Shown: positions 10,501-34,550 of the stretch, one piece after another | How positions within the stretch are numbered: position 1 is the stretch's first letter | How the letters are laid out: each line of letters begins with the position of its first letter | Assembly (NCBI RefSeq): GCF_947179165.1 | Contig: NC_077238.1 | Coordinates: forward strand, 44,095,793-44,159,792 | DNA length: 64,000 nucleotides | DNA from: Solanum dulcamara | Lineage: Eukaryota > Streptophyta > Magnoliopsida > Solanales > Solanaceae | Direction of reading: 5' to 3' | Translations under genes and position numbers: made by a program | The notes under the pieces: model-generated | The model's input: only the letters and a program-made list of their open reading frames with translations | Told to the model about the DNA's origin: nothing | Database searches by the model: none

Positions 10501-11105
10501 ATGGTTCTTACCACACCAGTAGCATGAGCGGTAGAGCCTTTCCTGGCTATCATCTCCCTTAAATTCGAGCCAGATGTTTTGCCTTTTTGACACCCTCTGA
10601 TGGTTAAATTATTTCCCCCACATAGCCTTCCTTTGGCTCACCTATTTCTTTTCTTTAAACTCATGTTCACAGGAGTCACATTTTATTGATTTAACTGAGC
10701 AGTCATAGCTCGAGCTAATAACATGAAGGCATCACCAAATTCTGGATTAGTCACTTGTTTGGCTAGAGGATCATTAGGGATTTATTCCTCATTAGCATCA
10801 ACCCCTCCTTCAATTGGAGGTTCGGGATCCAGAAGAACTTAGTCCTCGATAGAATCCATTACTCTAGGTGGAGGAATCTTCTTTAAGGAATTATCTAGAG
10901 AACACAATGATTCGTTAGATGAAGGAAGTCTTAGGAAAACTCAAAAGCAAGACATCAATCATAAAAGAAGGGAAAGTTTCCGAAATGCCTCATACTCTCC
11001 TATTCATAATTATGGCACACTTCACAATCATGAATTAAGACCATATTCGACGTGGTATGTTGGACTTTAAGGACCATTCAAAACCTCAAGCTCTGATATC
11101 AAGTT
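10500..11105 (-). other. gypsy copy 1: gag leftovers, 5' leader and primer-binding site
   Basis: No open frame of note. The primer-binding site complement GCTCTGATATCA is at 11090-11101, four bases from the 5' LTR. The leader (about 10,920-11,089) resembles 56,067-56,264 of copy 2, including the 'atgttggact' block. The space between leader and protease is too short for a full gag, so gag was mostly deleted. Confidence 0.65.
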
Positions 11106-13246
11106 TGTCACGATACAAACCTAGGGCCTAGACATCACACGGCGAATGAGGAACCCAAAAGTACCGCACCCAAACCTCTTAGCATTCATTTAGCTTTTCA
11201 TAGATAATGATAATAAATAAAAAAGCAAAAAACAAGGGGAAAGAGGGACTAAGGGAAATATGATTTTAAGAACCATAATAGTCAAGCTTAAACATACATA
11301 TGTCCAACAATACCTCTAATTTTTAGATTTGGCATAGGGCTAAGACAAGTTCCTAGCTCACCCTTAGTCAAAAATAGGATGAAATGTCATAATAAATGTC
11401 TAAAGGTCTCAACATATCATAAGCTAGAAATATAAAGAAGTACCACTCCAGGAACATAGGAACTCACCAAAAGTTGCCTTCAAGCAAATTCTAAAATAGC
11501 CACGTAGAGGATAACGACGAGGAACGCCAATCCCCATATAGTAATATCATGTAGGAAAATGATTATATGTTAGTAATTTGAATGTACTAAGTATGTCAGC
11601 ATGCAATACAATAAAAACCTTAATGCATTATAAAGTGAAGTACATGAGTAAGTGCATGGAAGAGTAATCAAGTAAATAGCATTTGAAATATTCATTTGTG
11701 GGAAGATGACTATAATCAACATTAAGACCATGTGAGCTATAACATGGAATCTAATGTAATCTCTGCATTGGAAGAAGGGAGACGACTTGCCAGGGTAGAA
11801 CTCTGTCAACACTCACTTTTTTAACATTTGATGGCCATTTGTGATACACTAGCCTAGCCTACAAGGGCTCCTATATTGGCACATAGTTCAAGAAACTAGA
11901 AGTTGCTACTAGGATTCTCTTACCGAACCCCATCTCAAGCCTCATTCGGTGCTAAGTCAATCCCACCGGAATAGCACATCTTAGTAACATAAACATATAT
12001 ACACATATACTTTGAGACATCAAATCATCATTTGGTAGAATAGATCCTTAAAACCTTTAGAGATTCAAGTATGCAAGATTGTCCTTATTGCATAAAGAAT
12101 CCATTAATTTAGATGAGAAGGCCTCACATCAACATTCATTCTTTCATTCAAGACTCACATAATCATAATCGTAGCTTCCATAAACATTGAATTAGAGTCC
12201 ATAACTTTAAAATCATATTTTTATGAAAATGAAGTGAAACTAGGTGGTTCAAGTCAATTCAATATCCCAACATGTATCTATTTAAAATCATGCATAAATA
12301 CCATGAAACTCATCAATTTAAATCATACTTATAGATAACCCACCATGAATTACAAGAACCTTTAAGGAACTAAGTAAAGATAATACTTGCAAACCTTCAA
12401 TACATACATTTGAAAACATATTAGTTCAAAATAGACCAATGACCATTACCTTGATCATGTTTCATGCTTTTGGATAGAAATTAAGGTAACCCATAAGAGA
12501 TTCTTACTTGAAATAAAAGACTTAGTTCTAAAAGGGTTTTAGGCTCCATGGATGGAAGAAACCATGGATAAATACTCACATACCTTGGTGAAGTTGACCT
12601 GATATTGAAAGGAGAACTTGCTCTTGAGGAACCCTAGAAATCAAAATGAGGAAGCCTTGAGACAAATCTTGAGGGGAAAGGGTTTTGTGTAGGGGAGTTA
12701 ATGTGAAAAATGAGGGGCTTAGGAAGTATTAGGGTCATTAGATAGGGTATATTTAGTCCTAAAATAACCACACTTTACTAATAAAATATAGGAAAGGATC
12801 AAAATACCCCTTTTTAAACAAAACCGAACAAACCCTATGATTGGTACTTACGAGTCGTAGAAACTACTCGTCTTGTAGAGTTAAAACCCCTAAAAACTGT
12901 GAGCCTCTGATCTTTCTGTACGACTCATTTTTATGAGTCACCATCTTTTCTATGGGTCGTTAGACCTATTCGTCCAACAGGGTCTGAAAAACTTGAAAAT
13001 CTAGGCCTTTGAAGGTTATCTACGAGTCACTTCTACGACTAGTCAACCCCTTCATGAGCTGTAACTTGGCTCGTAGACTCACTTCCTTACTTAGTCAACT
13101 TCCAAATCTCAACATCGCTTTTATGAGTCAGTCCTACGACTTGTAGAAGTACCTACGACTCATAGGTTGAGTCGTAGAAGCTGATATATCTCATTTCCTT
13201 ACATATTTGTCCTTCATTTTGACTTTTTGACTTACGGGATCTTACA
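11106..13246 (-). repeat. 5' LTR of gypsy copy 1
   Basis: Starts TGTCACGATACAAACC and ends GGATCTTACA. It pairs with 4605-6832. A GTATGTG motif (reverse complement cacatac at 12578-12584) is followed in sense by a stem with arms TCCATGG / CCATGGA (12545-12551 and 12562-12568). The U3 part (12,840-13,190) carries many gagtcgta-like inverted motifs. Confidence 0.88.
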
Positions 13247-14860
13247 ACACCTTTCCCTATTCCTTCTTTGTAGAAATGTTATTGCTGTAATTTATTGTTG
13301 TTGATATTTCTCCTTTATTATGTTATTGCTTTATATTTGCATTAGGATCATCCTCATCTGTTGATCTGCCACCTGATTGAAAAAATTGCATTATGTCCAT
13401 ATGAAGCTTCTCTATCAAATATTGTTCCTCTTTCTCTTCCTCTTCTTTCTCTACTCTGTATCCGCATTTTCCATTAATGTGGAAAACTTTTTGTACCCAA
13501 CTTCTAGTGTTGTTGGCTTGTAGTTTATCTTAACTGGACTTAACCTCGTTTTGCTGATGAGATTACTTTAGTTCCTCTCTAACTTGCATTTCTATATTAA
13601 TTAATGATTTAAACTTATTAAAAGTGACCAAGCCTTCTTTTGTTGTCTGATATCTCTCTTTGTTGACACCTTCTTTTTCTTTTGTTGGAATGTTTTTCCC
13701 TTTGCTAACATATTTTATTTCCTTCATAGGACTTCTGTCTTACACAATCTCCCAAGCATCTGGAGCTCTAATAATTTTTCCACTCATTAAGGTTCTTGGA
13801 GGGAAAGAATTTGAAGCAAAGGTTTGATAAGATCCATCTTCCATCCGATCATTGTTCCCTTTTCTACTGTATCATTATAGTATCAACTCAAATGAGGATT
13901 TAATTTTGTACATCCCTCCTCATTATTCCCTTATAATCAACATTCCTTACAATATTTTGGTTAAGCATTATATTGAATCCTTATATTATTTGTATGTCTT
14001 GCTCTAGTTGATTCATCTACTACGACCATACCTACAAATTTAGGTAAATCAGCAGAAAGGTCAATTTGTACTTTCACCTTTGCCTAGTTGGGCCTGGTCT
14101 TGTGAATTGTAGCCATGTCCAGGTGGAGGGGCTTCCCAATTGCAGATTCCAAAGTAAAAAAATCTCCCTTGATGAAGTCTGTAGGGAGCAGGTTAGGAAA
14201 CAAAATCCAAGTCACGGCTTGAGTGGTCTCTGCATCAACTCTAAAGCTTGGATTATATATGAGAGGTCTCATTAGAAAAACTACTCGATGTTTATTCTTC
14301 ACTTAGTGTACGTTTTTCAAAAGAATATTGATAAAAAATTAAACCAGTGCAAACCTTATCAAGATATGCATATACCTCAAAAATCTCATTTTACAGTCTC
14401 CAACTATACCATACTGGGATGGTTAATTCTTGCTTAAATCATCTAAATCAGGCAACCTTTGAACAAACTTACCAACAATCGCATATTGTAGGCATTCGAG
14501 CTTATTCATTCTTGTAACTTCTGCTTTTATCCATTCAATAGTAGGCACACCACCATCATAGCTAATTGATTTAATTGGGATTAGTTAAATATATTTGGGT
14601 ATAACAAAAGATGATTCCAATACCTTTTCACTAAAAACCTTACCATAATCTAATTTTTTGGTTTTAGGTTCATTAGCATTGGTAGGTAAAGAAGAACAGT
14701 TAGATTAGGAAATTTGAGACGAAGATGAGAGCCCAACCAACGTTGGTGGCCAGCTAGTAGATTGCATCGATGACATGGTTATTTTGCATTTATCTTAGGT
14801 TTCCCATAATCACTGCAACTCGAAAAGGGTCATATTTGTCTTTGTACTCTCAGAAAAAAA
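13247..14860 (-). pseudogene. LINE ORF1 (DUF4283-type nucleic-acid-binding protein), degenerate
   Basis: The minus-strand start is a plausible ATG at 14776 (MSSMQS...). It is followed by a Ser-rich stretch, DYGKVFSEKVLE, SYDGGVPTIEWIKAEVTRMNK and LQYAIVGKF. At 14084-14302 is the region TWILFPNLLPTDFIKGDFF...LESAIGKPLHLDMATIHKTRPN, which matches the DUF4283 domain found at the N-terminus of plant L1 ORF1 proteins. These bind the LINE RNA. Stops occur between the blocks. The downstream part is cut at 13,247 by gypsy copy 1 and resumes at 4604. The 5' leader ends near 14,860 in Athila-like sequence. Confidence 0.82.
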
Positions 14861-15211: not shown

Positions 15212-16297
15212 TGTCACAATCCAATCTACGCCTTAGGTGTGACACGGCAATTAGAATCTCGAAGGACTCTAACCAAGACTCTTAGCATATAATATATGAC
15301 CATACATAAGGTAAATAAAGCAATAATATTAAACCATATAAGTAGAAATACAATCATAACATGAATAACTCGATAAGAGTGAAAGTAACTCAAAAAAATC
15401 AAGACAACATAGACTCCATGAACATCTAACATGCCTCTATTAGTATAGATGGGGGCATAAGACAATTCCTAACTCACCCAAATATAAAAGGAAAAATTCA
15501 TAAGGACAATGAAAAGATAAATGTCTCATCCTCGAATCATGAGGACTCACCAACAATAGGAAAAAATGCTCAACCTGTAGCGATGAGTAGGAGGTGCGCG
15601 ATGATCATCGGATCGTATATTATGATACAATATAGGCAAAAAGTATGTTCTAGTATATGAAATGCACTAAGTATGTGAGAAGCATGCATGAACAATAATA
15701 ATAAAAGCACATAAATAATATGAACATGGGATACACGATAGATATCTTAAAACATGAGTAAAACTTGAACATATTTGAATATTATATCATAATCATGTAA
15801 TCAATGCATCATAGATGTTATGAGAACTTATACCATTTCATATACCTTTGTGTGGGATAGGACCTTAACCGATATATAAGACTATGTGAACTATAACATT
15901 GAATATGATGCAGCTCCTACATCGAGAAGAGAGAGGCTACTTGCCAAGGTTGACTCTATGAGAACATCTTAAACTTGAGCTATTTGTGGACCCACTAGCT
16001 AGGCCATAAAGACAAACCTACATGGGCAACATAGTTAGGGGATAGAGGTTGTTACTAGAGTTCCCTTGGGTCACTACTTGAGCTTTCGGACCGAACCCCA
16101 CTTCAAAGTCCTCTCGGTGCTTAGTCAATATCCCAATGGAATCATATATCATAGTCATTAACATCATTAGGAACATAATAAATATCAATTCTTCTCATAA
16201 AATAATCATAAGAGTATCTCATTAAGAGAATTGATTCATACAAGAATGAGAAAAATCTTTCAATCCTTATGAATCCGTGAGTCGGTGAGATAACCTT
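15212..16297 (-). repeat. Solo LTR D, segment 1 of 3
   Basis: Starts TGTCACAATCC after the target duplication CATAG (15207-15211) and shares the usual blocks of 2.2-kb Tekay-type LTRs ('aactcacc' near 15,548, 'ctatgtgaactataacat', 'accgaaccccacttcaaag'). It is interrupted at 16298 by the 5S-bearing array. The other segments are 28479-29144 and 44668-45124, where the second CATAG stands. Sum of segments is about 2.2 kb. Confidence 0.85.
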
Positions 16298-18744
16298 TGT
16301 CATGACCCAACTCCATAGGTTGTAACTGGTGCCCGAGTTGGGAACCCATACGTACCCTTAGCCCTACTTAGTGTGTTAGTAGAATAAACAAAAGTAGAAA
16401 TCAAAAAAGGGGTCACTAGAGGGCGCACGAAAACAAATATAGCAAACGGAGGCCGTTAAGGCTATCGCTGAACACAAGCCCAAAACACATATACAGAACC
16501 CACCATACAAGTCTACAGACCTCTACAAAATGATAACATAATTATATGGCGTGACAGGGCCTCTGCCGTACCCTAAATAAATAAATGTCGACATCAAATG
16601 GCCAGCACTAAGAGCTAGGCTCCAGAATAGTGGAGCCCTTCCAACATAGCTGAGTGAAAATCCTAAGCTGGAGGATCTCCGAAATGAACATCTGTACCTG
16701 CAGGCATAAAACGTAGCCCCTCCCCCCGAAGAAAGTGGGTCAGTACAGAAAATGTACTGAATATGTAAAGCATGGACTGTAATAAGTAAAGCCATTATCA
16801 AAACAGAAGGTGCACAAATGAGCAAACTACCCAGAATACCAAAATGCTTTTCATAACCATAGATATTGTATTCAGAAAACATATGCCATATCTGGCTCCA
16901 TTATGGGACTCAGTGAACAAATCGTGGTCGCCGCCTCATCACCAGCGCCACAAGATATCATAACTCCAGAGTAGGGAATATTTTCATAATAGATCATATC
17001 ATATTAGATGGTCATATCATATCATATGTGTACATGACACATTATAACTCCATAAATCCCATGTACAGGTCGTACCTACCCCCTCACGTTGGGGCACGAC
17101 GAATAATGCAGAGAAGTGTGCACGTTAACAAAACCTGACCCGAGCTCGGTGAAGGAAGAATTAAGGCATTCACAAGTGGAGTAGTGAGAAACTATATGCA
17201 ATTTAAATCATATTTCAGACTCTACGGAATAATCAAAATGAGCTTTTTTTTCAAAATCGAAACAAGAGTCATATCAAGTACCTTTTGAAAGTCACTATGG
17301 ACTATATCAAAATAGAACTTCTAGGAATCATATACACGAATTAGGGCATAACAAAATATCTTTTGAAAGTCGAGAAATTGGCCATCCCAGTGGCTTTAAG
17401 AATAGGAATTTTTTTGGAATCATATGAAAGTCATATACTTGTTTAGTAAAAACCATGCCAAAAAGGAAGATTAGCTTTATATATTTGTGTCCAAAAGATG
17501 CCAATAGATAGAATAAGATTAATACACTTATGCCGAAGACATGCTAAAAGAAAGTATAAGCCTTACATACTTATGCCAAAAATATGCCAAAAGAAGGAAA
17601 CGTTAGCTTTACATACCCCTTACGGATTACTCTTAACACATTTGCCTCGTCGTCTCTTGAACCTATTTAAAATGAAAGCAATACGAGCATAAAAAACCCT
17701 CGACTTTTTATCATCTTAAGTTACATACGAGTATTCATAGAACTCATCTCCTCACTCGACTTCTCGACTAGTTCCTTAGTTAGTTAAGGAGTTAACGAAA
17801 ATCGGGCAGCACCTCCCCTATAACATGCCCTATCCGAATATCCAATTAGATCCCTAACCACTACATCCAACCAAAAACAAAAACCTACAGCTCATATACA
17901 AATAAAACATGGCACCATTACACAACATAAGCTCCAAACAACTTGCTGAAAATTACGATACCAAAATAGGGTTTCCATTCTTTATTTTGCAAAACCTTTA
18001 ATTATACAAAACAAAGGGTCGTGTGGCTGAAACCAAAAGCTATCACACCTCTTTTAAAACACCTTTAGTCCCTGAAAAACACCACCACATACCTTCAGCA
18101 GTACACCAAAAGCACAATACCGTGCTTCGACTACAATTTAACAATAGCGACTACAATTTATCTTGCTTCGAACGTAAATATTTATACGACATTTTTACAC
18201 TTCCAACAGCATAAAAGGTTTTTAATACACCCTATAAAAACACCATAAACTTCAAATTGGAAAAAAATTACTTACCTTACCCTAAATTGGCCCAAACTCG
18301 CATAATCGCGCCTCGAAAACTCTTCAAACTTATTGAAATCACGCGGACTGCTTGTTATCTGTTTGGTGCTTCTACAAGCCATGATTTTACATTATTAACA
18401 CCTTTATATCATTTTCAAACTTACCAAAACGTGGGAGAAGAGAACCAAGCCATACCTTAACAAACAGCTTCCCAAACTTGCTGAAAATTAACTTCGGAAA
18501 CTCCTTAACATACTGAAAGTTGCGGACTGTTTGTGTCCCATCTTTTCTTCCCCAAACAGTAATTTTATGCTATTAAACCCCTTCATGTAGCCTTGGGACA
18601 CCGTAAATAATTAATTCACAAAACAAAATCGGAGGGCTTACCTTAAATTGGGGCAACCCGGTGCTGCCTCTCTCTTGGTCTTACATTTTTTCTCTCCATT
18701 TTTGGCTAAGTCCAAAGTTGAAAATGACTCCTTAGTCATCCATA

Positions 18745-18942
18745 CATATATATATATGCATCCTTAGAAGGTTCCACGTGGCATCCCCTAGGGGTGACAC
18801 GTGGCAGCCCCCTAGGGTGCCACCTCATTCATACCTCCAATCATTAGCTGCCACGTGGCAGCATGGCATCCCCCTAGGGGTGAAACATAGCATCCTCCTA
18901 GGGGCCAACTCAATCATGCCTCCAATCATTGGCTACCACGTG
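18745..18942 (-). promoter_or_regulatory. Candidate U3 promoter of LTR 1: four G-boxes and a TATA tract
   Basis: Four CACGTG cores lie at 18775-18780, 18798-18803, 18852-18857 and 18937-18942, three of them within CCACGTGGCA. They are interleaved with CCCCTAGGGG palindromes. In the sense (minus) direction they are followed within about 20 bases by an alternating TA tract (18745-18758) that can serve as TATA box. CACGTG is the classic bZIP/bHLH G-box/ABRE core in plants; stress or light response is inference. Confidence 0.55.
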
Positions 18943-18972
18943 GCAATGTGGGGTCTACCCAACCTGCTGCAT

Positions 18973-19055
18973 CACCTACTTGACCCTAAGTAGGTGCATC
19001 ACTTGCTTGTCCAAGTAGGTGCATCACCTACTTTCTTCGAATAGGCGCATCGTTT
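18973..19055. repeat. Short inverted/tandem repeat: CACCTACTTG and its complement AAGTAGGTG
   Basis: Alternating direct and inverted copies of GCATCACCTACTTG and AAGTAGGTGCATCAC occur with 4-6 base spacers, upstream (in element sense) of the G-box cluster. The same cluster recurs at 23410-23475 in LTR 2 and 28025-28105 in LTR 3. It could form cruciform/hairpin structures or be a multimerised factor-binding site. Confidence 0.7.
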
Positions 19056-19414
19056 CCTTATTTCTCTTTCGTGAGCTCCTAATATCGTCTTACTTCAAGA
19101 GCCTATGTATTCCTTGCTACTTAAGCTTGACCTATAATCAAGTAGCTTAGTATGTAAAATGTCCCAAGTAATAGCTTTCACAAGTAAGTCGAGTCCTACG
19201 ACTCACTACTTAACCTCCAACTTCTTCCGGATTCTTATAATACTATTTCCAATCTTCTCTCTTATAGAGTATCTCCTTCTCCTTTCCTTAGGATTATTTA
19301 ATAGCGTTCTAGATTACCCGACTCACATGACGACTTCTAAGAAACTTAAGAGCCTTCCCAGAAACTTAAGAAGCTTAAGAAGCATTCCAAGGTACCAAAG
19401 TACGGGGTGTAACA

Positions 19415-19446
19415 TCCTTCCCCCTTTAGAACATTCATCCTCGAAT
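19415..19446 (-). promoter_or_regulatory. Polypurine tract with CATTCG hairpin (domain 1)
   Basis: Minus-sense sequence is CATTCGAGGATGAATG (one arm mutated), TTCT, then AAAGGGGGAAGGA directly before the LTR start TGTTACACC. The purine run is a textbook PPT. The small inverted repeat matches the PPT-side repeat of the Tekay elements at 51250 and 6850. Confidence 0.8.
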
Positions 19447-19620
19447 GTGAACCAAAACCTTCCTCCGGATCTTATACCGACTATATGGAGAGTTCCTCTA
19501 TCCCATTGCCATAACATATACTTTCATAGAGAAACCAATATTAAAGTTCCAAAGGTTAGGATTACTTGTAGACGTAGGAAATAGATACGGTTAGTTGTGT
19601 TTCATTTCCTCTTTCACTTT

Positions 19621-19718
19621 CTAGGGGGTCACCCATCCTAGTACTACTCTCGCCCAAGCACACTTAACTTCGGAGTTCTGATGGGATCCGGTGCGTTAGT
19701 GCTGGTATGATCGCATCC
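19621..19718 (-). ncRNA. 5S rRNA-derived sequence (3'-truncated), copy 1
   Basis: The minus strand from 19718 starts GGATGCGATCATACCAGCAC and matches plant 5S rRNA from position 1 to about 95 with few changes. It covers the internal Pol III promoter: box A region (AAGTTAAGTGTGCTTGG, with C to T in the usual GCGTGC), the intermediate element, and box C (GGATGGGTGACC). After GTGACC the match fades (CCCTAGAAAGTG instead of TCCTGGGAAGTC), so the 3' strand of the closing stem is missing and a normal 5S rRNA cannot form. It is in sense with the element. The first downstream run of four T's is at 19457-19454. It is a retrotransposon passenger, not an rDNA unit. Confidence 0.92.
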
Positions 19719-20780
19719 ATCCCTTATGGGATCTCTTTTGAAGTTTAAGCATTCCCATTTACATATGATAGCATCAGTTGATTTTCTTTTACGCTTGAAC
19801 TTCTCTTGTCCATTTCCCCTCTTTAGGGTGTATTCATGTCATTGTCTAAGTCCTTTCCAACCTATTTAGTATATTGCGCTATTTCCATATCTTCCTTTAC
19901 ATCACCTATATTTTAGGTTACCCTTGTACGAAACCTTAATACAATTATGAGGTGCTTAGAATCCTCAATATACAGTACCAACTCCAGTCTTGAACACTGG
20001 TACTCGAGTAATATCCTTATTGTAGTAGTGCATTTAAAGCCACATTCCATTCGTCCCAATAAGTAATTAGCTCATCACCATTTATCCTAATATATCAACT
20101 CAGTCGGTGCCTTAATATGTCATTCTATCCAGATTTAGGTGTCATCTCTAAATCATCTTCATAGGATCATAAGTTTTTTCCAACTTCGTTTTACCATACA
20201 AATATCGACCTTTCAAGATATATTACAATACTATATCTCATTCTCTTTTTATTTCTAGGAAAATTTGGGCAGAGTTTCCTTTGTATTTCTCCCTATCTCA
20301 ACATGCAGGAAATACCAACAATGCCTCATTGGGAAAAGATATATTTATTCATATCACAGCTATATAATGCTTTCAATATCAATAACCGTATGAAAATAAT
20401 GGACTTACCTCCTGTGTCCAACTCAAACTGCATTTGTTACACTTTCCTGTCTACTTTCCTTTCACCTTTCTACCTTACATGTCAATCGTATTTCCATACC
20501 TCACCTGACATATCTCCTTCGTGCCTTTGCTTACCTGCATGCCTTGTAACCTCCAATATCGTCAGTTACTTTCTTCTATCGATGTTGTCCTTCTACTGAA
20601 ACCACAAGTTAGTATGAGGACTTTCATTCCCTATGATTCGGCTCTATCGCACGATCTTAGATATGAAAGAAAGGTAGCATCTTAAATGTCTTGAAGCCTC
20701 CTATTTATAGATGTGGTGCACAACACACCGATAAACAAGACTCTACTAAACACGGTCTATAGACACTCCAAGGACGAACT

Positions 20781-20796
20781 ACTCTAATACCACTTC
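20781..20796 (-). other. Primer-binding site, domain 1
   Basis: Minus-sense TGGTATTAGAGT, four bases after the LTR end (TGACA-GAAG). It matches the TGGTATCAGAGC site complementary to initiator Met tRNA at 10 of 12 positions. Confidence 0.8.
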
Positions 20797-23700
20797 TGTC
20801 ATGACCCAACTCTGTAGGCCGTGACTGGTGCCCGAGTTGGGAATCCATACATACCCTTAGCCCCACTTGGCGTGTTAGCAGAATAAACAAAAATAGAAAT
20901 TGAAAAAGGGGTCACTAGAGGGTGCACAAAAATAGATATAGCACACGGAGGCCGTTAAGGCCGTCGCTGAGCACAAGCCCAAAACACATATACAAAACCC
21001 ACCACACAATTATACAGACCTCTACAAAATGATAGCATAATTATATGGCGGGACAGGCCCCCACCGTACCCCTAAATAAACAAATATCGACATCAAATAG
21101 CCAGCACCAAGAGATAGGCTCTAGAACAGTGGAGCCCTTCCAAAATAGCTGATCCTAAGCTGGAGGATCTCTGAATTGAACATCTATACCTGCGGGCATG
21201 AAACGCAGCCCCCCCTCCCCCTCGAAGAAAGGGGGTCATTATAGAAAATGTACGGAATATATAAAGCATGAACTGTAATAAGTAAAGTCATTACCAGAAC
21301 AGAAGGTGCACAAATGAGCAAACTACCCAGAATACCAAAATGCTTTTCATAACCACAGATATTGTATTCAGAAAACATATGCCATATCCGACCCCATTAT
21401 GGGACTCAGTGAACAAATTATGGTCGCCGTCCCGTCATTGGCACCATAGCACATTATAACTGCAGAGTAGGGAATATCTCCGTAATAGATCATATCATAT
21501 CATATGGTCATATAAAATCATATCATATCATATATGTACATGTCACATCATAACTCCATAAATCCCATGTACAGGTCGTACCTACCCCCTCATGTTGGGG
21601 CACGATGAACAATGCAGAGAAGTGAGCACGATAACAAAACCTGACCTGAGCTCGATAAAGGAGGCATTGAGGCATGCACGAGTGGATTAGTGAGAAACTA
21701 TATGCAATTTAAATCATATTTGAGACTCGACGGAATAATCAAAATGAGATTTCATTCAAAATCGAGAAAAGAGTCATATCAAGTACCTTTTGAAAGTCAC
21801 TATGGACTATATCAAAATAGAACTTCTGGGAATCATATACATGTATCAGGGCATAACAAAATATCTTTTGAAAGTTGAGAAATTGGCCATCCTAGTGGCT
21901 TTAAGAATAGGAACTTCTTTGGAATCATATGAAAGTCAGATACTTGTTTCGTAAAAACCATGCCAAAAAGGAAGATTAGCTTTACAATTTTATGCCCAAA
22001 ACATGCCAAGAGATAGAATAACCTTAATACACTTATGCCGAATACATGCCAAAAGAAAGTCTAAGCCTTACATACTTATGCCAAAAATATGCCAAAAGAA
22101 GGAAACGTTAGCTTTACATACCCCTTACGGATTACTCTTAACACGTTCGACTCATCATCTCTTGAATCTATTTAAAATGAAAGCAATACAAGCATCAAAA
22201 ACCCTCGAATTTCCATCGTCTTAACTTACATATGAGTATTCATAGAACTCATCTCCTCGCTTGCCTTCTTGACTAGTTCCTTAGTTAGTTAAGGAGTTAA
22301 CGGAAATTGGGCAGCACCTCCCCTATAACATTCCGTATCTAATTTTCTAATTAGATCCCTAACCTCTACAGACAACCAACAAAAAAAACCTTGCAGCTCA
22401 TATACAAATAAAACATGGCACCATTAGTTAACATAAGCTCTAAACAACTTTCTGAAAATTACGATACCAAAATAGGGTTTCCATTCTTTATTTCGCAAAA
22501 CCTTTAATTATACGAAACGAGGGGTCTTGTGGCTGCAACCAGAAGATACCACACCTCTTTTAGAAAACCTTTAGTCCTTGAAACACACCACCACACACCT
22601 ACAGCAGCACAGCACAAGCACAACACTTTGCTTCGACTATAATTTAACGATAGCGACTCCAATTTAGCTTGCTTTAAACATAAACATTTCTAATACATTT
22701 TTACACTTATAGAGGCATAAAAGGTGTTTAATACACCCTATAACAATACCATAAACTTCAAATTGGAAGAAAAGACTTTACCTTACCCGAAATTGACCCA
22801 AACTCGCCAAATCGCGCCGCGGAAACTCTTCAAACTTGCTGAAATCGCGTGGACTGCTTCTTATCCATTTGGTTCTTCTCCAAGACATGATTTTACATTA
22901 TTAACACCTTAATATCATTTCCAAACCCTTACCAAAATGTGGGAGAAGATAACCAATCCATACCTTAACAAACGGCTTCCCAAACTTGCTGAAAATTAAC
23001 TTCGGAAACTCCTTAACATGCTGAAAGTTGCGGACTGTTCGTGTCCCTTCTTTGCTTCCCCAAAAATTAATTTTACGCTATTAAACCCCTTCATGTATCC
23101 ATGGGATACCGTAAATAATTAATTCAGAATAAAATCGAAGGGCTTACCTTAAATTGGAGCAACCCGTGGCTGCCTCTGTCTTGGTCTCACATTTTTGCTC
23201 TCCATTTTTGGCCAAGTCCAAAGCTGAAAATGACTCCGTATTCATCCATACATATATATATACATCCTTAGGAGGTTCCACATGGCATCCCCCTAGGGGT
23301 GACACGTGGCAGCCTCCTAAGGTGACATGTGGCAGCCCCCTAGGGTGCCACCTCATTCATACCTCCAATCATTAGCTGCCACATGGCAGCATGGGTCCAC
23401 CCAACCTGCTGCATCACCTACTTGATCCTAATTAGGTGCATCACCTACTTGTCCAAGTAGGTGCATCACCTACTTTCTTCGAGTTGGCTCGTCGTTTCCT
23501 TATTTCTCTTTCGTGAGCTCGTAATCTCGTCTTACTTCAAGAGCCTATGTATTCCTTGCTACTTAAGCTTGACCTGTAATCAAGTATCTTAGTATGTAAA
23601 ATGTCCCAAGTAATAGCTTTCACAAGTAAGTCGAGTCCTATGACTCACTACTTAACCTCCATCTTCTTCCGGATTCTTATAACACTATTTCCAATCTTCT

Positions 23701-23856
23701 CTCTTATGGAGTATCTCCTTCTCCTTTCCTTAGGATTATTTAATAGCGTTATAGATTACCCGACTCACATGATGACTTCTAAGAAACTTAAGAGCCTTCC
23801 TTGAAACTTAAGAAGCTTAAGAAGCATTCCAAGGTACAAAAGTACGAGGTGTAACA
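20797..23856 (-). repeat. LTR 2 of the 5S-bearing array
   Basis: 3060 bp, TGTCATGACCC...GGTGTAACA. U3 promoter region at 23252-23390: TA tract 23252-23262 and only one intact CACGTG (23303-23308). The other G-box positions read CACATG or CATGTG, that is CG to CA/TG decay. The AAGTAGGTG inverted cluster is at 23410-23475. Confidence 0.88.
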
Positions 23857-25245
23857 TCCTTCCCCCCTTTAGAACATTCGTCCTCGAATGTGAACCAAAA
23901 CCTTCCTCCGGATCTTATACCGACTATATAGAGAGTTCCTCTATCCCGTTGCCATAACATATACTTTCATCAAGAAACCAATATCAAAGTTCCAAAGGTT
24001 AGGATTACTTGTAGACGTAGGAAATAGATACAGATACTTGTGTTTCATTTCCTCTTTCACTTTCTAGCGGGTCACCCATCCTAGTACTACTCTCGCCCAA
24101 GCACGCTTAACTTTGGAGTTCTGATGGGATCCGGTGTGTTAGTGCTGGTATGATCGCATCCATCCCTTATGGGATCTCATTTGAAGTTTAAGCGTTCCCA
24201 TTTACATATGATAGCGTTAGTTGATTTTCTCTTACGCCTGAACTTCTCTTGTCCACTTCCCCCCTTTAGGGTGTATCCATGTCATTGTCTGAGTCCTTTC
24301 TAACTTATTTAGTATACTACGCTATTTCCATATGTTCTTTTACATCACCTATATTTTAGGTTACCCCTGTACAAAACCTTAATACAATCATGAGGTGCTT
24401 AGAATCCTTAATATATATTACAAACTCCATTCTTGAACACTGGTACACGAGTAATATCCTTACTGTAGCAGTGTATTTAAAGCCACATTCCATTCGTCCC
24501 AATCAGTAATTAGCTCATCACCGTTTATCTAGGTGTATCAACTCAGTCGGTGCCTTAATATATTATTCTATCCAGATCTATGTGTCATCTTTAAATCATT
24601 TTCTTAGGATCACAAGTCTTTTCCAACTTCGTTTTACCATACCAGTATCGACCTTTCAAGATATATTACAATCATATATCTCATTCTCCTTTTATTTCTA
24701 GAAAAATTTGGGCAGAGTTTCCTTTGTATTTCTCCCTATCTCAACACCTGCACGCAGGAAATACCAATAATGCCTCACCGAGATAACATATATTTATTCA
24801 TATCATAGCCACACAGGGCTTTCAATATCAATAACCGTATGAAAATAATGGACTTACCTCTTGTGTCCAACTCAAACTTTATTTGTTACACCTTCTTGTC
24901 TACTTTCCTTTCACCTTTCAACCTTACATGTCAATCGTATTTCCATACCTCACCTGACATATCTCCTTCGTGCCTTTGCTTACCAGCATGCCCTGTAACC
25001 TCCAATATCGTCAGTTACTTTCTTCTATTAATGTTGTCCTTCTGCTGAAACCACAAGTTAATATAAGGAATTTCATTCCCTATGACTCGGCTCTATCGCA
25101 CAATCTTAGATATGAAAGAAAGGTAACATCCTAAATATCTTGTAGCCTCCTGTTTATAGATGTGGTGCACAACACACCGATAAAATAGACTCTACTAGAC
25201 ACGGTCTATAGACACTCCAAGGACGAACTGCTCTCATACCACTTT
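23857..25245 (-). mobile_element. Internal domain 2 of the 5S-bearing element
   Basis: 1389 bp, colinear with domain 1. The minus-sense PPT AAAGGGGGGAAGGA is at the left end, preceded by CATTCG-AGGA-CGAATG with both arms intact. The primer-binding site TGGTATGAGAGC (complement at 25230-25241, 11 of 12) is at the right end. Apart from the 5S block no coding or RNA gene is seen. Confidence 0.85.
24065..24161 (-). ncRNA. 5S rRNA-derived sequence (3'-truncated), copy 2
   Basis: Same position and orientation as copy 1, minus-sense start GGATGCGATCATACC at 24161. The box A region is AAAGTTAAGCGTGCTTGG, closer to the standard 5S promoter than copy 1. Box C GGATGGGTGACC is intact. The match ends at the same point as copy 1 (GTGACCCGCTAGAAAG), showing the 3' truncation predates the array. 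A T-run (complement at 23897-23900) lies upstream of the PPT. Confidence 0.92.
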
Positions 25246-28200
25246 TGTCACGACCTAACTCCATAGGCCATGACGGGTGCCCGAGTTAGGAACCCATACG
25301 TACTGTTAGCCCCACTTAGCATGTTAGCAGAATAAACAAAAGTAGAAATCGAAAAGGGGTCACTAGATGGCGTACGAAAACAGATATAGCACACTGAGGC
25401 CGTTAAGGCCGTCACTGAACACAAGCCTAAAACACATATACAGAACCCACCATACAAGTCTACAGACCTCTACAAAATTATAGCATAATTATATGGCAGG
25501 ACAGGGCCCCCGTCGTACCCCTGAATAAACAAATGCCGACATAAAATAGCCAGCACCAAGAGCTAGGCTCCAGAATAGTGGAGCCCTTCCCACATAGCTA
25601 AGTGGAAATCCTAAGCTAGAGGATCTTTGAAATGAAATGAACATTTGTACCTGCAGGCATGAAACGCAACCCCCCTCCCCTCCAAAGAAAGGGGGTCAGT
25701 ACAGAAAATATACAGAATATGTAAAGCATGGACTATAATAAGTAAAGCCATTACCAGAACAGAAGGTGCACAAATGAGCAAGCTACCCAGAATACCAAAA
25801 TGCTTTTCATAACCACAGATATTGTATTTAGAAAACATATGTCATATCCATCCCCATTATGGGACTCAGTGAGCAAATCATGGTCGTCTCCCCATCATCG
25901 GAGCCACAGCACATCATAACTCCAGAGTAGGTAATATCTCCATAACATATCATATCATATCAGATGGTCATATCAAATCATATCATATCATATATGTACA
26001 TGGCACATCATAACTCCATAAATTCCATGTATAGGTCGTACCTACCCCCTCAGGTTGGGCCTCAGCGAATAATGCAGAGAAGTGCGCACCATAACAAAAC
26101 TTGACCCGGGCTCGGTGAAGGAAGCATTGAGGAATTCATGAGTGGAGTAGTGAGAAACTATATGCAATTTAAATCATATTTGAGACTCGACAGAATAATC
26201 AAAATGAGCTTTTGTTCAAAATCGAGACAAGAGTCATATCAAGTACCTTTTGAAAGTCACTATCGACTATATCAAAATAGAACTTCTGGGAATCATATAC
26301 ACGTATCAGGGCATAACAAAATATCTTTTGAAAGTTGAGAAATTGGCCATCCTAGAGGCTTTAAGAATAGGAACTTCTTTGGAATCATATGAAAGTCAAA
26401 TACTTGTTTCGTAAAAACTATGCCAAAAAGGAAGATTAGCTTTACATATTTGTGCCCAAAACATGCCAAGAGATAGAATAAGCTTAATATACTTATGCCG
26501 AATACATTCCAAAAGAAAGTCTAAGCCTTACATACTTATGCCAAAAACATGCTAAAAGAAGGAAACGTTAGCTTTACATACCCCTTACGGATTCCTCTTA
26601 ACACGTTCGCCTCTTCGTCTGTTGAAACTATTTAGCATGAAAGCAATATGAGCATCAAAAACCCTCGACTTTTGATCGTCTTAACTTACATATGAGTATT
26701 CATAGAACTCATCTCCTCGCTTGCCTTCTCGACTAGTTCCTTAGTTAGTTAAGGAGTTAACGGAAATCGGACAGCACCTCCCCTATAACATGTCCTATCT
26801 GAATTTCCAATTAGATCCCTAACCACTACAACCAACCAAAAACAACAACCTTCATATATATACAAATAAAACATGGCAACATTACACAACATAAGCTCCA
26901 AACAACTTGCTGAATATTACGATACCAAAATAGGGTTTCCATTCTTTATTTCACAAAATCTTTAATTATACAAAATGAGGGGCCATGTGGCTGAATCCAG
27001 CATATACCACACCCCTTTTATAACACATTTATTCCCTGAAACACACCTACACACACCTGCAGTAGCACACCACAAGCACAACACCTTGCTTCGACTACAA
27101 TTTAATGATAGCGACTCCAATTTAGCTAGCTTCAAACGTTAAACATTTCTACGACATTTTTACACTTCCATCAGCATAAAAGGTGTGTAATACACCCTAT
27201 AACAACACCATAAACTTAAAATTGGAATAAAATACACTACCTTACCCGAAATTGGCCCAAACTCGCCAAATCGCACCTCGGAAACTCTTCAAACTTGCTA
27301 AAATCGCACAGATTGCTTGTTATCCGTTTGGTGCTGCTCCAAGAAATGATTTTAAATTATTCACACCTTCATATAATTTCCAAACCCTTAACAAAACATG
27401 GGAGAAGATAACCAAGCCATACCTTAACAAACGGCTTCCCAAACTTGGTAAAAATTAACTTGGTAGTAGAATGGGATTGATGATGAGCTGGCAAAAGCCC
27501 CCAGATCTCCTGGTTTGTGAGCCAGTTTCAAAGACTTTTTTTCTTAGCTGCTCTAGATTCTATTCTATATGCTACTTACTTACATATTCTGTTTTATTTC
27601 AAAAGGTGGCTCATCTATATAGCATAGCTGAAAGCGGACAAAAAAGCCTTAATATGCTAAAAATATCGGACTGTTCATGCCCCTTCTTTGCTTCCCCAAA
27701 CAATAATTTTACGCTATTAAACCCCGTCATGTAGCCGTGGGATACCTTAAATAATTAATTCACGGAATAAAATTGAAGGTCTTACCTTAAATTGGAGCAA
27801 CCTATGGCTGCCTCTCTCTTGGTCTCACATTTTTTCTCCCCATTTTTGGCTAAGTCCAAAGCTAAAAATGACTCCTTAGTCATCCATACATATATATATA
27901 TGCATCCTTAGGAGGTTCCACATGGCATCCCCCTAGGGGTGACATGTGGCAACCCCTAGGGCGTCACCTCAATCATGCCTCCAAGCATTGGCTGCCACAT
28001 GGCAGCATGGGGTCCACCCAAGCTACTGCATCACCTACTTGACCCTAAGTAGGTGCATCACCTTCTTTTCCAAGTAGGTGCATCACCTACTTGCTTCAAG
28101 TAGGCGCGTCATTTCCTTATTTCTCTTTCATGGGCTCATAATCTCGTCTTACTTAAAGAGCCTATGTATTCCTTGCTACTTAAGATCGATGTGTACTCAA

Positions 28201-28473
28201 GTAGCTTAGTATGTAAAATGTCCCAAGTAATAGCTTTCACAAGTAAGTCGAGTCCTATGACTCACTACTTAACATCCAACTTCTTCCGGATTCTTATAAC
28301 CCTATTTCCAATCTTCTCTCTTATGGAGTATCTTCTTCTCCTTTCCTTAGGATTATTTAATAGAGTTACAGATTACCCAACTCACATGACGAATTCTAAG
28401 AAACTTAAAAGCCTTCCCAGAAACTTAAGAAGCTTAAGAAGCGTTCCAAGGTACCAAAGTATGGGGTGTAACA
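25246..28473 (-). repeat. LTR 3 of the 5S-bearing array
   Basis: TGTCACGACCT...GGTGTAACA, 3228 bp, longer than its partners because of an unrelated insert at about 27462-27634. The U3 TA tract is at 27890-27902. All G-box cores have decayed to CACATG/CATGTG. It is followed by the right target duplication ACCTT (28474-28478). Confidence 0.88.
27462..27634. other. About 173-bp unidentified insert in LTR 3
   Basis: Absent at the matching place in LTRs 1 and 2, where AACTT runs straight into CGGAAACTCC. Contains an inverted pair CTGGTTTGTGAGCCAG and an earlier GAGCTGGC, a T7 run near 27536, and no A-tail. No clear target duplication or terminal repeat. I do not recognise it; a SINE-like or captured transcript origin is possible. 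Confidence 0.55.
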
Positions 28474-28478
28474 ACCTT

Positions 28479-29144: not shown

Positions 29145-32100
29145 TGTAATAACTCTCCATGTAATTTTCCTTTTTTCCAATCTTTTCAATGTTTAAAGAT
29201 TTCATGTAGCGATCCCAAGCCATTTATGACTTGCTGACATTGACAGTTCGGTTGCATAGTCGTTTGTTTGGGTTTATGCCTGATTCCCTGTTTTGGAGCC
29301 CTTGGAGTTTGATCGGTTGACTTCGATCAAAATTCTAGAATATAACCTTAGAATAGAATTCTCATGGTCCCATCAGCTCCAAAATGGTCATATTATGCTA
29401 GTATCATACTTGGCCCGAGCCCAAGCATTTCGGTGCGAGTTTGAGCCATTAGATATTTTTGCTTTCAAGCTTTAGCCTAAGGTTGACTTTGGTCAACATT
29501 CATGGTAAATGCACTTAGATTAAAATTTTGTCAGTGCAATATACTCTAGAATGTTTATTTTAGTCTAGCATGATCCTTCATGCAGTTCTCGAGGCTTCCG
29601 GTCTCATTTCGAGCCTCCTTGTAAAATTAGTAAAAATAGTGCAAGGGTGTGGGACCCACTTTTTTTAAGATGACCTTGGATGGAAAATTTGACTGCATCG
29701 TTGAGTATGGAGTGTTGAATTTGGTGAGGTATCATAGTTCGTTAGTGCGTATGGGATACAAAAAGAATCTCAAGCACTTCGTCGGAGACTTTAGACTTTG
29801 ACAAATCAAAAATTGTAGCAAAATCTGATGTAGGCCCATTTTACTCTTCGCTTTCATGCAACAAGGGCCATTTTTAGAGAATCTATGGGCCTTATCCTCT
29901 ATATTCACAGACATGGGGCCGCATTTAAGAAGTCCTAAGGGATTGGCCTCCACATTTGCGAGGTACCTGTCACTTTCGCGGAGCCTAATGGCTCTTCCCT
30001 CTGCGTTCACGGACCCTAATGGCTCTTTTCTCCATGTTCTTGGTGGCCCTGCCATATTTGTGGAGCATTAAGGACTTAGCGTCTATGTTCGTGACCTTTT
30101 CCTCTGCGTTCGCGTAGAGCATTTGTCTGGTCTTTTAATTTAAGACCAAATGCAAACAGCCCCGACCCCATTCCCTCTTATTATGATTTTGAGAGCTATA
30201 GAGCTCCAATTTTATAGATTCTAAGTCTGGTAGGTTCATATTGATCTTTGCTACATGTTAGTATTTCGGGGAAACATGCAAGAAGGTGGTTTGAGGTAAT
30301 TTCCGCTCTAAAGGGTCTTCCCTAACTTAGCTTCAAGCTTTCATGGTCAAATTTATTGTTGGACTTATTTCTCTCATTTTGAGCAACAAGTTATGCCCCC
30401 ATTTTGGGATACAACTCAATAATGCATTTAATTTTTTTTATAGAGGTGATTTTGGGGTTCTCATTACAGGTCCCACAATCTCTTTTTGACCTAATTTTGG
30501 GTCCATCTCTAAAGAATACAATTTTAGCCCCAAAACATTCATATTAACAATATGATCAATATTTTGAAAGTGTGGAGGCAATTGGAGTTGTTTTTGGAGT
30601 AAAAAGTTATCGAAAAGTGGACTTGGAGCACGCGTGTTTAGCTTCGAGGTAGGCTACGGTCTTCTTTCTTTTGATTGATCTTTATGAGTTGTTGTATAGT
30701 AAAAATTGTTTGTGGTTTGGATTATATGCGATGGGTCAGGCTCGATTCCTAGTTTCTTGTTTCTTTTTCCTGGTATGAGCCTTAGGCTAGGTTGCCTTTA
30801 TGAGACTTCCAGTCTAGTTGGTAAGATTATGGATCATGCCTTAGTTTGGCCTTGATTAGCCTATTTTAGTTTGCTTGTGCAATGTTTGTGGTTCTTGGAG
30901 GAATTATACCTTAGAATTGAGTTTGGGTTGATCCTTAGTTGATGTAGCCATTGTTGGTGGGAATTTCAAGAATTAGTTTCCTTCGCTATTGTAGCACCTA
31001 TTTTAGAGCCATGGTGTAGTGGTTCTCACCTGATTAGGCTTGTGAATTACTTTTGGGCCCCATTTTTAGATTTAGAGGTAGAATCCTTTATGTTTTTAGT
31101 TACATTTTGGCGGGGCTAGTTGTATTTACACTCTTAAGGTTGTACTTTGGTTGAATCTGGAGCTATTGATGGACTAGTTGAGCACCTATTTTCTCATATT
31201 CTCCTCATTGTTACCCAGTTAAGGTTTAGTTCACTTTTTGGTCTTGCTATTGAGTTAGAGGAGTAGATTTGAGCCCTAGGCATTGGATAGAGGTCAGTTG
31301 TATATGTTAGTCCTGATTTTGTACTCTAGAGGGTAAGATGCTTGTGGCTTCGTTATTGTATGTGATTGTGTATGTTGTTTGGGTATTGGTGATGGCATGC
31401 ATTGTATTAGATCCTTATTTTCTCACAGATGTAGTCGACCTCGATGTATGCATTGGTTCTTAGCATTAATTTGAGGAAGTTGGGTTGTAACCCACACTAT
31501 TTTATATGGATTTTCTAAATAGGGGTCATACTACCTTTATTACTACTATTTACAGTGGACTAGAGGCATCGAGGATGCACTCATTTTCTTATATTGGTTC
31601 GATTGGAGAGAGTTCCTGACCCTTTCTATGCTAATTTGACAATTTATCTCTGATCATCATAACAAAGCAAATTTTTGATGATTGGATATGCATATTGATA
31701 TTTATATAGATATAAGACCTAGAGGTGTTCCTGAGCCCCTCATGGCGATCCCAGAGAGTCGCATGGGTCCTACTTTCTGGCCGGGATTGGAAGTACGTGT
31801 ATATATTTTGGTATGAGGGACTTGGCGTTGATGTCACTACTGGTTTTATTGCATAACTGTCATTCATATATGTATTGCCTATCACCAGCATAGTTGTTTG
31901 TACCTATTGGTAGTATGGGATGCCGTTCAGGTTTACCTGCTTGTGAGTGAACCTCTTGGGCATACAGGGCTTGGGAGAGGTATTATTTGACTATTTACGA
32001 AGTTGTGGCGGTATAAAAGGTGGTCTCTTGTTTGAAGGTAGTAACTGCCCTTGTTCTTATTTATCTAATTTTTTTGTGTAAGGATTTAGTTGATACGGTT

Positions 32101-32246
32101 CTTTGGGCCTTTATGTGATATATGTGTTTACTTGTGTTAGTAGGTTGTCACTTAGTTGTCCTCCTTTATATAGTGTTGTCGGGTTAAGGTTCTGGCTGGT
32201 GCCACTAGGTACGTCCTTTGGTTCCTCATTTGTTTCCTATTTTCTC
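29145..32246 (+). repeat. LTR of element A, left copy (3' part missing)
   Basis: About 3.1 kb, non-coding. Contains a stretch around 29,860-30,125 with repeated 'ttcgcgga/cacggac...gaggcc' words on both strands, and 'ggttgactt(c/t)gatcaa' motifs shared with the LTR at 63,015. Broken at 32246 by LTR B. Confidence 0.75.
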
Positions 32247-34329
32247 TTTAACACCCCTCAAAAATGCCCACAAAATACCTTAAGAATGCCTTGAAAATAG
32301 GTCGCTCATGTAACGCATTATCCTTAATCTTTTTGGAAAATTCGACTTTGAAATATCGATTAGAGAGTTAAAACCTGCGGGAAAATGGTCTCGATGGATT
32401 TTTAGGACCCGTAGAACGGAAGAAAGATTTTCGAAGAAACCACAAAATAATGTGGCCCGCGACAGGACCGCGTCGCGGACCTGGGAAGGTCTTCCGGCCG
32501 AATTAAGATTTTTTAAGGGGCGTTTTAGACTTTTTATAAATTATTAGTTAATGAACCTAGACATTTTTAGGACCTAATTCAACTCTATAAATTAACTTAA
32601 ACCTCTAATTCTATTCATTCTTCTATAATTCAGCTATCAAATATTTCTCTCTCTACAAAAAGGCTCTCAAGGGTTTCCATTGAAGACTTCAAGCAAATTC
32701 ACTCAATTTCTCCATCAAAATTCTCAAGTCTTCCAAATTAATTAGTGTTCTCACTCAAGGTATGTGGGTATTGATTCGTGGATCCTTTCATCTATGAAGC
32801 TCAATCAATTTCTCAAGGTTTTCTATCAAATTAAAGTATGGTGTTTTATGGGTTTTGTGATCTCTATTCCAATTGCATGAATTTTGATTTAAAGTATGAT
32901 CATGAGTCTATTTTGATATAAATTAATGGTTATTGAATTAAATTGAAGAGTTTTCCCATAAATTCTCTTATTTTGATTTCTAGGGTTCATGATGTAAATT
33001 ATAAGTATTTTGATTTATACTTCTAAAGGATGTTATCTATATGAATTATGTATGGGCTAATATAAAGTTTATGATCATGCATGTTTTCAAGTCAATTTCA
33101 TGATTTTCAAGTAAATTGATCATGCATTCATGTCATACCCTAATTTCAAGTATAAGCTATTATCATGAGTTTTCAAGTTATATTCTATGAGAACTTTTAT
33201 TTAATGATTTCAAGGGTATTATTATGAATCTCATTCAAATTGATTATGCATTCAAGTTTTACCCTAATTTCCAAGCATGAATTATTTCTATGTATGTATG
33301 ATTTGTAATGTGGAAGGACAATACCCGCATTTCACTTATGTTATGAAAATGAGCTATTCTATGATTTTAAACCTATGATCATGACTATGATATATAAAAT
33401 TTAAGATCTTATGTTATGTATGTATTCCTTGGGATTTGATTTAGCACCGAATGTGAACTTGAGGTGGGGGCTCAAAGCAAGGGGTCCTTATATAAAGTCT
33501 CTTGTCTCATAACTACGTGCCACCGTAGGATTATATTTTTGGCCTAGATAGTGGATCCACAAATAGCACATGTTCATGATTAGGAGTCTACCTTAGCAAA
33601 GTAGTCTCCTCCTTCTCGATGTGGGTATCATCGGATTCCATGTTATAGCTCGCATGGTCTTATTGTCGGTTATGGTTCCTATCCCACATATGTACTTTTC
33701 TTTATGTTTTAAATGACTAATCCTATCTTTTAATTTACATGATACTCTTATAGTTATGATGCATTGATCTTTCTTAAAGACTACTTATGATTTTTGACTA
33801 TTTCTGCTAACATGCTAATTTAAATGGTCATTGTTACAAATATGGTTTCTCATGCATTGCATTGCCCCACATACTTAGTATATTCCAACGTACTAATGCA
33901 TACTTTTTGCCTACATTGTCTCATAATATAGGGGTTGAGGTTGAAGATCCTAATCGTCCACGTAACTAGTAGGCATCCTCTATTTGATGGTGTTGTGGTG
34001 AGTCCTTATTGACCGGGGACTAGTTTTATGTTGGTTACTATTTTCTTTTCAAAAGAATTTTGCTTATGTTGTATATTGAGGGGGAGATATGGACATGTCT
34101 TAGCCCCCGCCCATACTCATATTTAGAGGCATCTAGTTGGACATATGTTTGAGTCTATGTTGTCATAAGACATTTTCATATTTCTATTCAAGATTTTAGA
34201 CTCTCTTGTGATGCTTCTGCTTTTATATAATACCTTATGTATACTTATAATATATACAAGAGGCTTGGTTGGAGCCCTTCAGTATTTTGATCATCGTGTT
34301 ATGACTAGGCCCTAGGCTGGGTCGTGACA
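32247..34329 (+). repeat. 5' LTR of gypsy relic B
   Basis: Starts TTTAACACCCC (expected TG eroded) and ends GGTCGTGACA, 2083 bp, immediately before a primer-binding site. GTATGTG is at 32760-32766, followed by a stem TTCGTGGAT / ATCTATGAA (32775-32783, 32790-32798; two G-U pairs). U3 has GTGGCCCGCGAC and CGCGTCGCGGAC near 32,450-32,480. Confidence 0.8.
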
Positions 34330-34333
34330 AACT

Positions 34334-34345
34334 TGGTATCAGAGC
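34334..34345 (+). other. Primer-binding site of relic B
   Basis: TGGTATCAGAGC, a perfect 12-base initiator-Met tRNA site, four bases after the LTR end. Confidence 0.9.
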
Positions 34346-34550
34346 ACAAGGTTTTCCAAGTGTCCTAGGGTGTCCAACATGCCGCGTCAAGTAAAGTCTT
34401 ATTCATAGGTGTGAAGCACACCACACTTATGAGTAGGAGGCTATGAGGCGTCTTAGGAAATTCTCACTTCTTTCATGATCCATGTCGTGCGGTAGAGTAG
34501 TACTCTAAGACCTTTCCTCCTAATGATTATTCTTTACGATTTTTCAGAAC

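What the first reader, a model, noticed from the sequence alone, without database searches (positions are those of the whole stretch)
16298..28473. A long-LTR, gene-less retrotransposon that carries a 5S rRNA-like gene in its internal domain
Both internal domains contain the first ~95 bases of 5S rRNA, sense-oriented and about 200 bp from the PPT. The known plant 5S-carrying retrotransposon, Cassandra, is a tiny TRIM whose 5S lies in a ~0.3-kb LTR. Here LTRs are over 3 kb and the 5S lies between PBS and PPT, so this looks like an independent capture. Identical 3' truncation in both copies shows it was fixed before amplification. I do not know a described family with this layout, but cannot search.
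Basis: partly seen in the sequence, partly recalled or inferred. Interest (0 to 1): 0.88.

Follow-up and report, generated by a model that had tools for sequence, protein, structure and literature searches.

The report
Gene-less retrotransposon carrying 5S rRNA fragment
A plant jumping element with very long end repeats and no genes of its own has picked up most of a 5S ribosomal RNA and carries it between those repeats in hundreds of copies, and a distant cousin in the same genome carries a second, reversed 5S piece.

Summary
Window 28473-16298 (minus strand) is LTR-internal-LTR-internal-LTR with one 5-bp duplication (AAGGT) round the whole array. LTRs are about 3.1-3.2 kb; internals are about 1.39 kb and gene-less. 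Each internal carries nt 1-102 of 5S rRNA, sense, starting at +1 of the host 5S gene. It belongs to the family: of 40 scored places 35 cover it (34 read, 34 have it), 4 stop short and 1 lacks it; the junction occurs 649 times in the 942-Mb genome. Leader, PBS, pre-PPT box and LTR tip resemble Tekay/Del Ty3-gypsy elements, so this is a LARD-like non-autonomous derivative, not Cassandra. A second family with a related leader (73%) carries an older antisense 5S about 2.5 kb from its PBS (13 of 13 read). Best reading: reverse transcriptase jumped onto 5S rRNA, and the fragment was then copied as cargo. Selection on the block was tested and not shown; its Pol III control region is present, activity unknown. 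The paper searches that were answered listed no family with this layout. New variant of a known kind.

The parts
28474..28478 (-). target site duplication AAGGT, 5' copy
25246..28473 (-). LTR 1 (3228 bp), TGTTACACCC...GTGACA
23857..25245 (-). internal domain A (1389 bp), no gene
25230..25241 (-). primer binding site TGGTATGAGAGC (one base from TGGTATCAGAGC; initiator-Met assignment recalled)
24060..24161 (-). 5S rRNA block A, nt 1-102, 97 of 102 identical to host 5S
23897..23900 (-). first TTTT downstream of 5S block A, possible Pol III stop (inference)
23857..23889 (-). pre-PPT box ATTCGAGGACGAATGTT and polypurine tract
20797..23856 (-). LTR 2 (3060 bp), shared by both units
19415..20796 (-). 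internal domain B (1382 bp)
20781..20792 (-). primer binding site of internal B, diverged (TGGTATTAGAGT)
19617..19718 (-). 5S rRNA block B, nt 1-102, 99 of 102 identical to host 5S
19454..19457 (-). first TTTT downstream of 5S block B
19415..19446 (-). pre-PPT box and polypurine tract of internal B
16298..19414 (-). LTR 3 (3117 bp)
16293..16297 (-). target site duplication AAGGT, 3' copy

Best explanation
A high-copy, non-autonomous Ty3/gypsy retrotransposon related to Tekay/Del (LARD-like), moved in trans by proteins of related autonomous elements. Shown: anatomy, lower bound of copy number, target site duplications, and a 5S rRNA fragment in nearly every copy that reaches that far. Inferred: the fragment came from 5S rRNA itself. 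A reverse transcriptase making minus-strand cDNA jumped from the 3' part of the element RNA onto a 5S rRNA at about nt 102, copied it to its 5' end (+1), ran off and jumped back. The founder was then amplified; LTR-internal-LTR-internal-LTR arrays arose by recombination or at insertion. The fragment keeps the 5S internal control region, so some copies may recruit TFIIIA and Pol III and make a short RNA of about 260 nt that ends about 40 nt before the end of the internal. Nothing shows that the element needs this: most likely it is cargo.
For: All 34 internals read carry the block (Rfam passes 32 of 34); 649 junction matches, control 0. The block begins at +1 of the host 5S in the 22 copies compared (three bases GAT just before it also agree) and ends at nt 102-104; with a 341-bp host unit a start within 3 bases of +1 has a chance of about 2% if any DNA break were equally likely (own estimate). 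Sense orientation fits a jump during minus-strand synthesis. Exact 5-bp duplications in the window and at L010, L021, L025, L026; L010 and L014 sit inside gypsy pol genes. Leader of ~170 nt, pre-PPT box and PBS shared with gypsy elements of the window; LTR tip one base from the commonest Del tip TGTAACACCC (passages of PMC4029996).
Against: No autonomous partner was found: the LTR search did not complete and the window's gypsy elements share no LTR match. RNA origin is not proven; a DNA break at +1 would look the same. The related second family has its 5S in antisense, which this route does not explain simply. One of 40 scored places lacks the block; a pre-capture remnant is not excluded. Slight hints of constraint (shared transversions 6 against 30 single in the block, 149 against 377 outside; one-sided p 0.09, two-sided 0.18) leave room for function.
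Confidence: 0.6

Rival explanations
1. The 5S block is a working part selected in the element: an internal Pol III promoter or a binding site for 5S proteins, as proposed for Cassandra.
For: The internal control region is present; in 20 of 22 copies the first T-run lies 259-261 nt after +1, and none of the 22 has one in the 200 nt before +1. A second related family also holds a 5S. Shared transversions in the block are about half the outside rate.
Against: Constraint not significant: block against rest and control region against the rest in the second family (p 0.11 and 0.17). Copies differ from host 5S at 5-16 of nt 1-105 (the last 2-3 of these lie beyond the break), mainly C>T/G>A. The exemplar of the second family has TTTT at +44, inside the 5S. 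The predicted RNA folds no better than shuffles (z +0.65).
Confidence: 0.2
2. DNA-level capture: a piece of a 5S gene, a 5S-headed SINE or a Cassandra 5S was inserted into an ancestral internal domain by insertion or break repair.
For: In L067 the absence spans about 164 nt, more than the 102-nt block, with a 2-nt overlap at the joint. In the second family the 5S is antisense and a paralogous module lacks it. A 5S copy joined to what looks like a SINE exists in this genome (L053).
Against: No host spacer sequence before +1 beyond three bases. No target duplication seen round the block (own reading). L067 looks like one later deletion, since 34 other copies agree on the flanks.
Confidence: 0.17
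3. A Cassandra element, or a Cassandra inserted in another element.
For: Cassandra also has a 5S part, a Met PBS and tandem arrays (passages of PMC7215508 and PMC10853983).
Against: The 5S lies between PBS and PPT, LTRs are 3 kb, and duplications fix the outer ends; Rfam finds no 5S in the LTRs.
Confidence: 0.03

Closest known systems
Cassandra TRIM (passages of PMC7215508, PMC10853983; Kalendar 2008 itself not opened, one search failed)
   Same: Gene-less LTR retrotransposon with a 5S-derived part that includes the internal control region; Met-type PBS; tandem LTR-internal arrays.
   Different: [quoted passage not shown] here a unit is about 4.45 kb plus an LTR, and the 5S lies between PBS and PPT.
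Ajax (nemertean TRIM with 5S in the LTR; abstract and two sections of PMC10886601)
   Same: 5S fragment in a non-autonomous LTR element.
   Different: 421-434 bp, 5S in LTR, animals.
LARDs (large retrotransposon derivatives; as described in passages of PMC7215508)
   Same: Long LTRs, non-coding internal domain, dependence on proteins supplied in trans.
   Different: No 5S part is mentioned for LARDs in the passages seen.
Tekay/Del Ty3-gypsy elements (three gypsy elements in this window; passages of PMC4029996)
   Same: Leader of ~170 nt, PBS, pre-PPT box, LTR tip.
   Different: No gag-pol here; no significant LTR match to those in the window.
TRIM elements of plants (passages of PMC4717578)
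   Same: Gene-less, tandem L3I2 arrays.
   Different: TRIMs are tiny; that survey states that no 5S was found in TRIM families other than Cassandra.

Membership tests
Cassandra | 5S-derived sequence within the LTR | tested here: not met
   Block lies in the internal domain; no Rfam 5S match in the LTRs
Cassandra | Total length 563-968 bp | tested here: not met
   LTR-internal-LTR is about 7.4-7.7 kb (figure from PMC10853983)
Cassandra | Met-type PBS | tested here: met
   TGGTATGAGAGC at 25241-25230; also shared with gypsy elements, so not telling
LARD | Long LTRs and a non-coding internal domain | tested here: met
   LTRs over 3 kb; longest stop-free stretch 79 aa
LARD | Mobilised in trans by an autonomous relative | not tested
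   The LTR search for a partner did not complete (last tried); copies with duplications show that it did move
Tekay/Del Ty3-gypsy | Leader, PBS, pre-PPT box and LTR tip of the lineage | tested here: met
Tekay/Del Ty3-gypsy | Chromodomain integrase and pol of the lineage | tested here: not met
   No pol in the internal; the element can only be a derivative
LTR retrotransposon | 5-bp target site duplication | tested here: met
   Exact in the window and at 4 of 20 fetched loci (L010, L021, L025, L026); 4 of 5 bases at L014 and L023; 3 of 5 at L012; not resolved at the other 13
5S rRNA gene | Complete 119-nt gene with closed helix I | tested here: not met
   Homology ends at nt 102-104
5S rRNA gene | Transcribed by Pol III | not testable with these tools
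   No expression data; control region present

The most novel reading that the evidence does not exclude
Long-LTR, gene-less gypsy derivatives of this genome recruited 5S rRNA at least twice, once sense and once antisense, because an internal Pol III/TFIIIA site helps them, for example by giving a short RNA that ends before the PPT or by keeping copies open in heterochromatin. They would be a class of 5S-bearing LARDs separate from Cassandra.
Probability: 0.15. Interest if true: 0.85.

Novelty: new variant of a known kind. Interest (0 to 1): 0.66.

Why it matters
The paper searches answered here list no LTR retrotransposon with this layout: long LTRs, 5S between PBS and PPT, hundreds of copies, and a related second family with an opposite 5S. 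The joint at +1 is a readable trace of how 5S rRNA can enter a retrotransposon, which is only guessed at for Cassandra and Ajax. Hundreds of 5S-like blocks away from the rDNA can also mislead 5S copy counts, FISH and small-RNA mapping.

Tried and rejected
Chance match: rejected. Insertion at this place only: rejected. Cassandra: rejected by layout. Selection on the block: tested by diversity (against sliding windows of equal width the block ranks at 7% for transversion diversity and at 24% for non-CpG diversity), by shared against single variants (p 0.66 at non-CpG sites, 1.0 at CpG sites; transversions, one-sided 0.09, two-sided 0.18) and by control region against the rest in the second family (p 0.11 and 0.17); none significant. 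Specially folded RNA: z +0.65, 149 of 200 shuffles fold at least as well. Plasmid collection: no match; not informative for a plant element.

Against 'always present': of 40 scored places, 35 cover the 5S, 4 stop before it, and 1 (C6:50.30 Mb) runs through without it. Only 341 bases of that copy were fetched (L067); about 164 nt are missing, including the whole block and about 60 nt of element sequence, with a 2-nt overlap at the joint. I read it as a later deletion; a remnant from before the capture is not excluded. Two of 34 internals (L045, L048) miss Rfam's cut-off: L045 is decayed, L048 lacks about 34 nt of the block. The 35th covering place (C23:48.66 Mb) and the 4 short ones were not fetched.

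Not achieved: autonomous partner by LTR search; pattern count of the second family; count of internals by a pattern outside the 5S; Cassandra of this genome; any other species; LTRs, duplications and PPT of the second family. A scripted duplication scan was too permissive to use alone; duplications were read by eye from printed junctions.
Full report
What is there. On the minus strand from 28473 to 16298 lies LTR-internal-LTR-internal-LTR. LTRs measure 3228, 3060 and 3117 bp, internals 1389 and 1382 bp, and AAGGT stands on both sides of the array. The internals begin with a primer binding site near TGGTATCAGAGC and end with ATTCGAGGACGAATGTT and a polypurine tract. LTRs start TGTTACACC and end TGACA. 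The longest stop-free stretch in six frames of the first internal is 79 aa.

The 5S block. Rfam matches 5S rRNA at 19718-19597 and 24161-24025, minus strand, 71.0 and 68.1 bits. The genome's own 5S array lies at C7:63.75-64.28 Mb, with 341-bp units. Against that host gene the window blocks cover nt 1-102 with 97 and 99 identities. In the 22 copies compared, agreement with the host begins at +1 (the three bases GAT just before also agree, then it is lost) and ends at nt 102-104. This is a 5S fragment without the 3' half of helix I, so it cannot give a normal 5S rRNA.

It is a family. With the internal as query, 40 places were scored of 11139 first-look candidates, so counts are lower bounds. 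Of these 40, 35 cover the 5S, 4 end before it and 1 runs through without it. I read 34 of the 35: 2 in the window, 20 in 10-kb loci L009-L028 and 12 in L041-L052. All 34 show the block in alignment, L048 with a 34-nt gap in it; 32 of 34 pass Rfam's cut-off. A 32-nt junction pattern with up to 3 mismatches has 649 matches in 942 Mb, its reversed control 0. The copy without the block (L067, 341 bases fetched) misses about 164 nt with a 2-nt overlap at the joint and loses element sequence on both sides; I read it as a later deletion.

It moves as a unit. Exact 5-bp duplications stand in the window and at L010, L021, L025 and L026; L014 and L023 keep 4 of 5 bases, L012 3 of 5; the other 13 of 20 fetched loci were not resolved. 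L010 and L014 lie inside gypsy pol genes split by the element. Pairs of internals on one strand at 4.44 kb (window), 4.41 kb (C1:61.47 Mb) and 3.81 kb (C1:52.37 Mb) show that arrays recur. LTR distances in the window are 0.107, 0.117 and 0.107 (K2P); at a recalled rate of 1.3e-8 per site and year this is about 4 million years, and their near equality suggests that the array is about as old as the insertion.

Kinship. The first ~170 nt of the leader align with three other gypsy leaders of the window (two of the three also by BLAST), and the pre-PPT box recurs there. The commonest Del LTR tip in print is TGTAACACCC (passages of PMC4029996), one base from TGTTACACCC here. The LTRs share no significant match with the window's gypsy elements. 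So the element is LARD-like and akin to Tekay/Del; the helper was not found.

A second 5S family. L016 continues into a related element (exemplar L054, C7:49417400-49421500) whose leader is 73% identical over about 590 nt. About 2.5 kb from its PBS lies a nearly full-length 5S in antisense (53.8 bits). All 40 scored places of that stretch (of 3040 candidates) run through the 5S at 88-100% identity. Of these 40, 13 pair with one of the 40 best leader places at 2100-2138 bp on the same strand; no pair within 10 kb is on opposite strands, and one further leader lies 5.9 kb on the other side, as a tandem neighbour would. In 13 of 13 copies read this 5S is 72-82% identical to the host 5S and shares changes, so it is older. 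A paralogous module of L054 lacks it. Different orientation, extent and age point to two captures; one capture followed by inversion is not excluded. LTRs, duplications and PPT of this second family were not worked out.

How it works. The start at +1 and the sense orientation fit a reverse transcriptase that jumped to a 5S rRNA and copied it to its 5' end. PMC13317346 (passages) describes jumps between unrelated packaged RNAs as a source of chimeric plant elements. For this element it is inference, and the antisense second case needs another route.

Does the block do anything? The 5S control region is inside it. In 20 of 22 copies the first T-run lies at +259 to +261; one has it at +131 and one has none. 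Selection was tested three ways without a significant result. The predicted RNA is not unusually folded. The exemplar of the second family has a T-run inside its 5S. I judge cargo more likely than function, without excluding function.

Literature. The answered searches (one search found no paper) list no paper that, by title or abstract start, describes a long-LTR element with 5S between PBS and PPT; only the listed part of each result was seen, and searches failed. Seen: abstract, outline and two sections of PMC10886601; passages of PMC7215508, PMC4717578, PMC4029996, PMC10853983, PMC12786077, PMC13317346, PMC7076952, PMC4524691 and PMC12222929. PMC4717578 states that no 5S was found in TRIM families other than Cassandra. 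PMC4524691 reports that nine of 688 unknown potato repeat consensus sequences matched non-coding RNAs, 5S rRNA among them; one of these could be such an element. The library holds open papers only, and Repbase could not be searched.

Noticed in passing
L054 (G000:C7:49417400-49421500), 2765-2646: A second, related gene-less family carries an antisense, nearly full-length, older 5S in its internal domain (13 of 13 copies read).
   Followed up: partly
L053 (G000:C6:35273700-35274700), 400-518: A lone 5S copy with its first bases replaced runs after its end into sequence that looks like a tRNA-derived SINE (recalled likeness, not searched).
   Followed up: no
L016 with L054 (C7:49.409-49.421 Mb): A mixed array: an internal of the window family is followed by an LTR only 73-75% like it (where matched) and then by an internal of the second family.
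   Followed up: partly
G000:C2:39520229-39530924: Two second-family units lie about 8 kb apart on one strand, so that family forms arrays too.
   Followed up: no
window 48963-58600: A younger gypsy element on the minus strand: repeats of 2.33 kb at 97.6% identity round gag-pol frames with few breaks.
   Followed up: no
window 4726-13261 and 31022-44085: Two older gypsy elements, minus and plus strand, with decayed pol and 2.1-kb and 1.25-kb repeats.
   Followed up: no
window 58593-59309 and 58717-59921: A 238-aa open frame that by eye resembles a movement protein of an endogenous plant pararetrovirus (recalled, not searched), overlapping a direct repeat of 467 bp at 92.9%.
   Followed up: no
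window 1898-2398: A 166-aa frame that by eye looks like a LINE endonuclease fragment (recalled, not searched).
   Followed up: no
window internals, about 110-140 nt upstream of the 5S: Both window internals lack about 28 bp that the 6 other copies printed have, which marks a sub-lineage.
   Followed up: no
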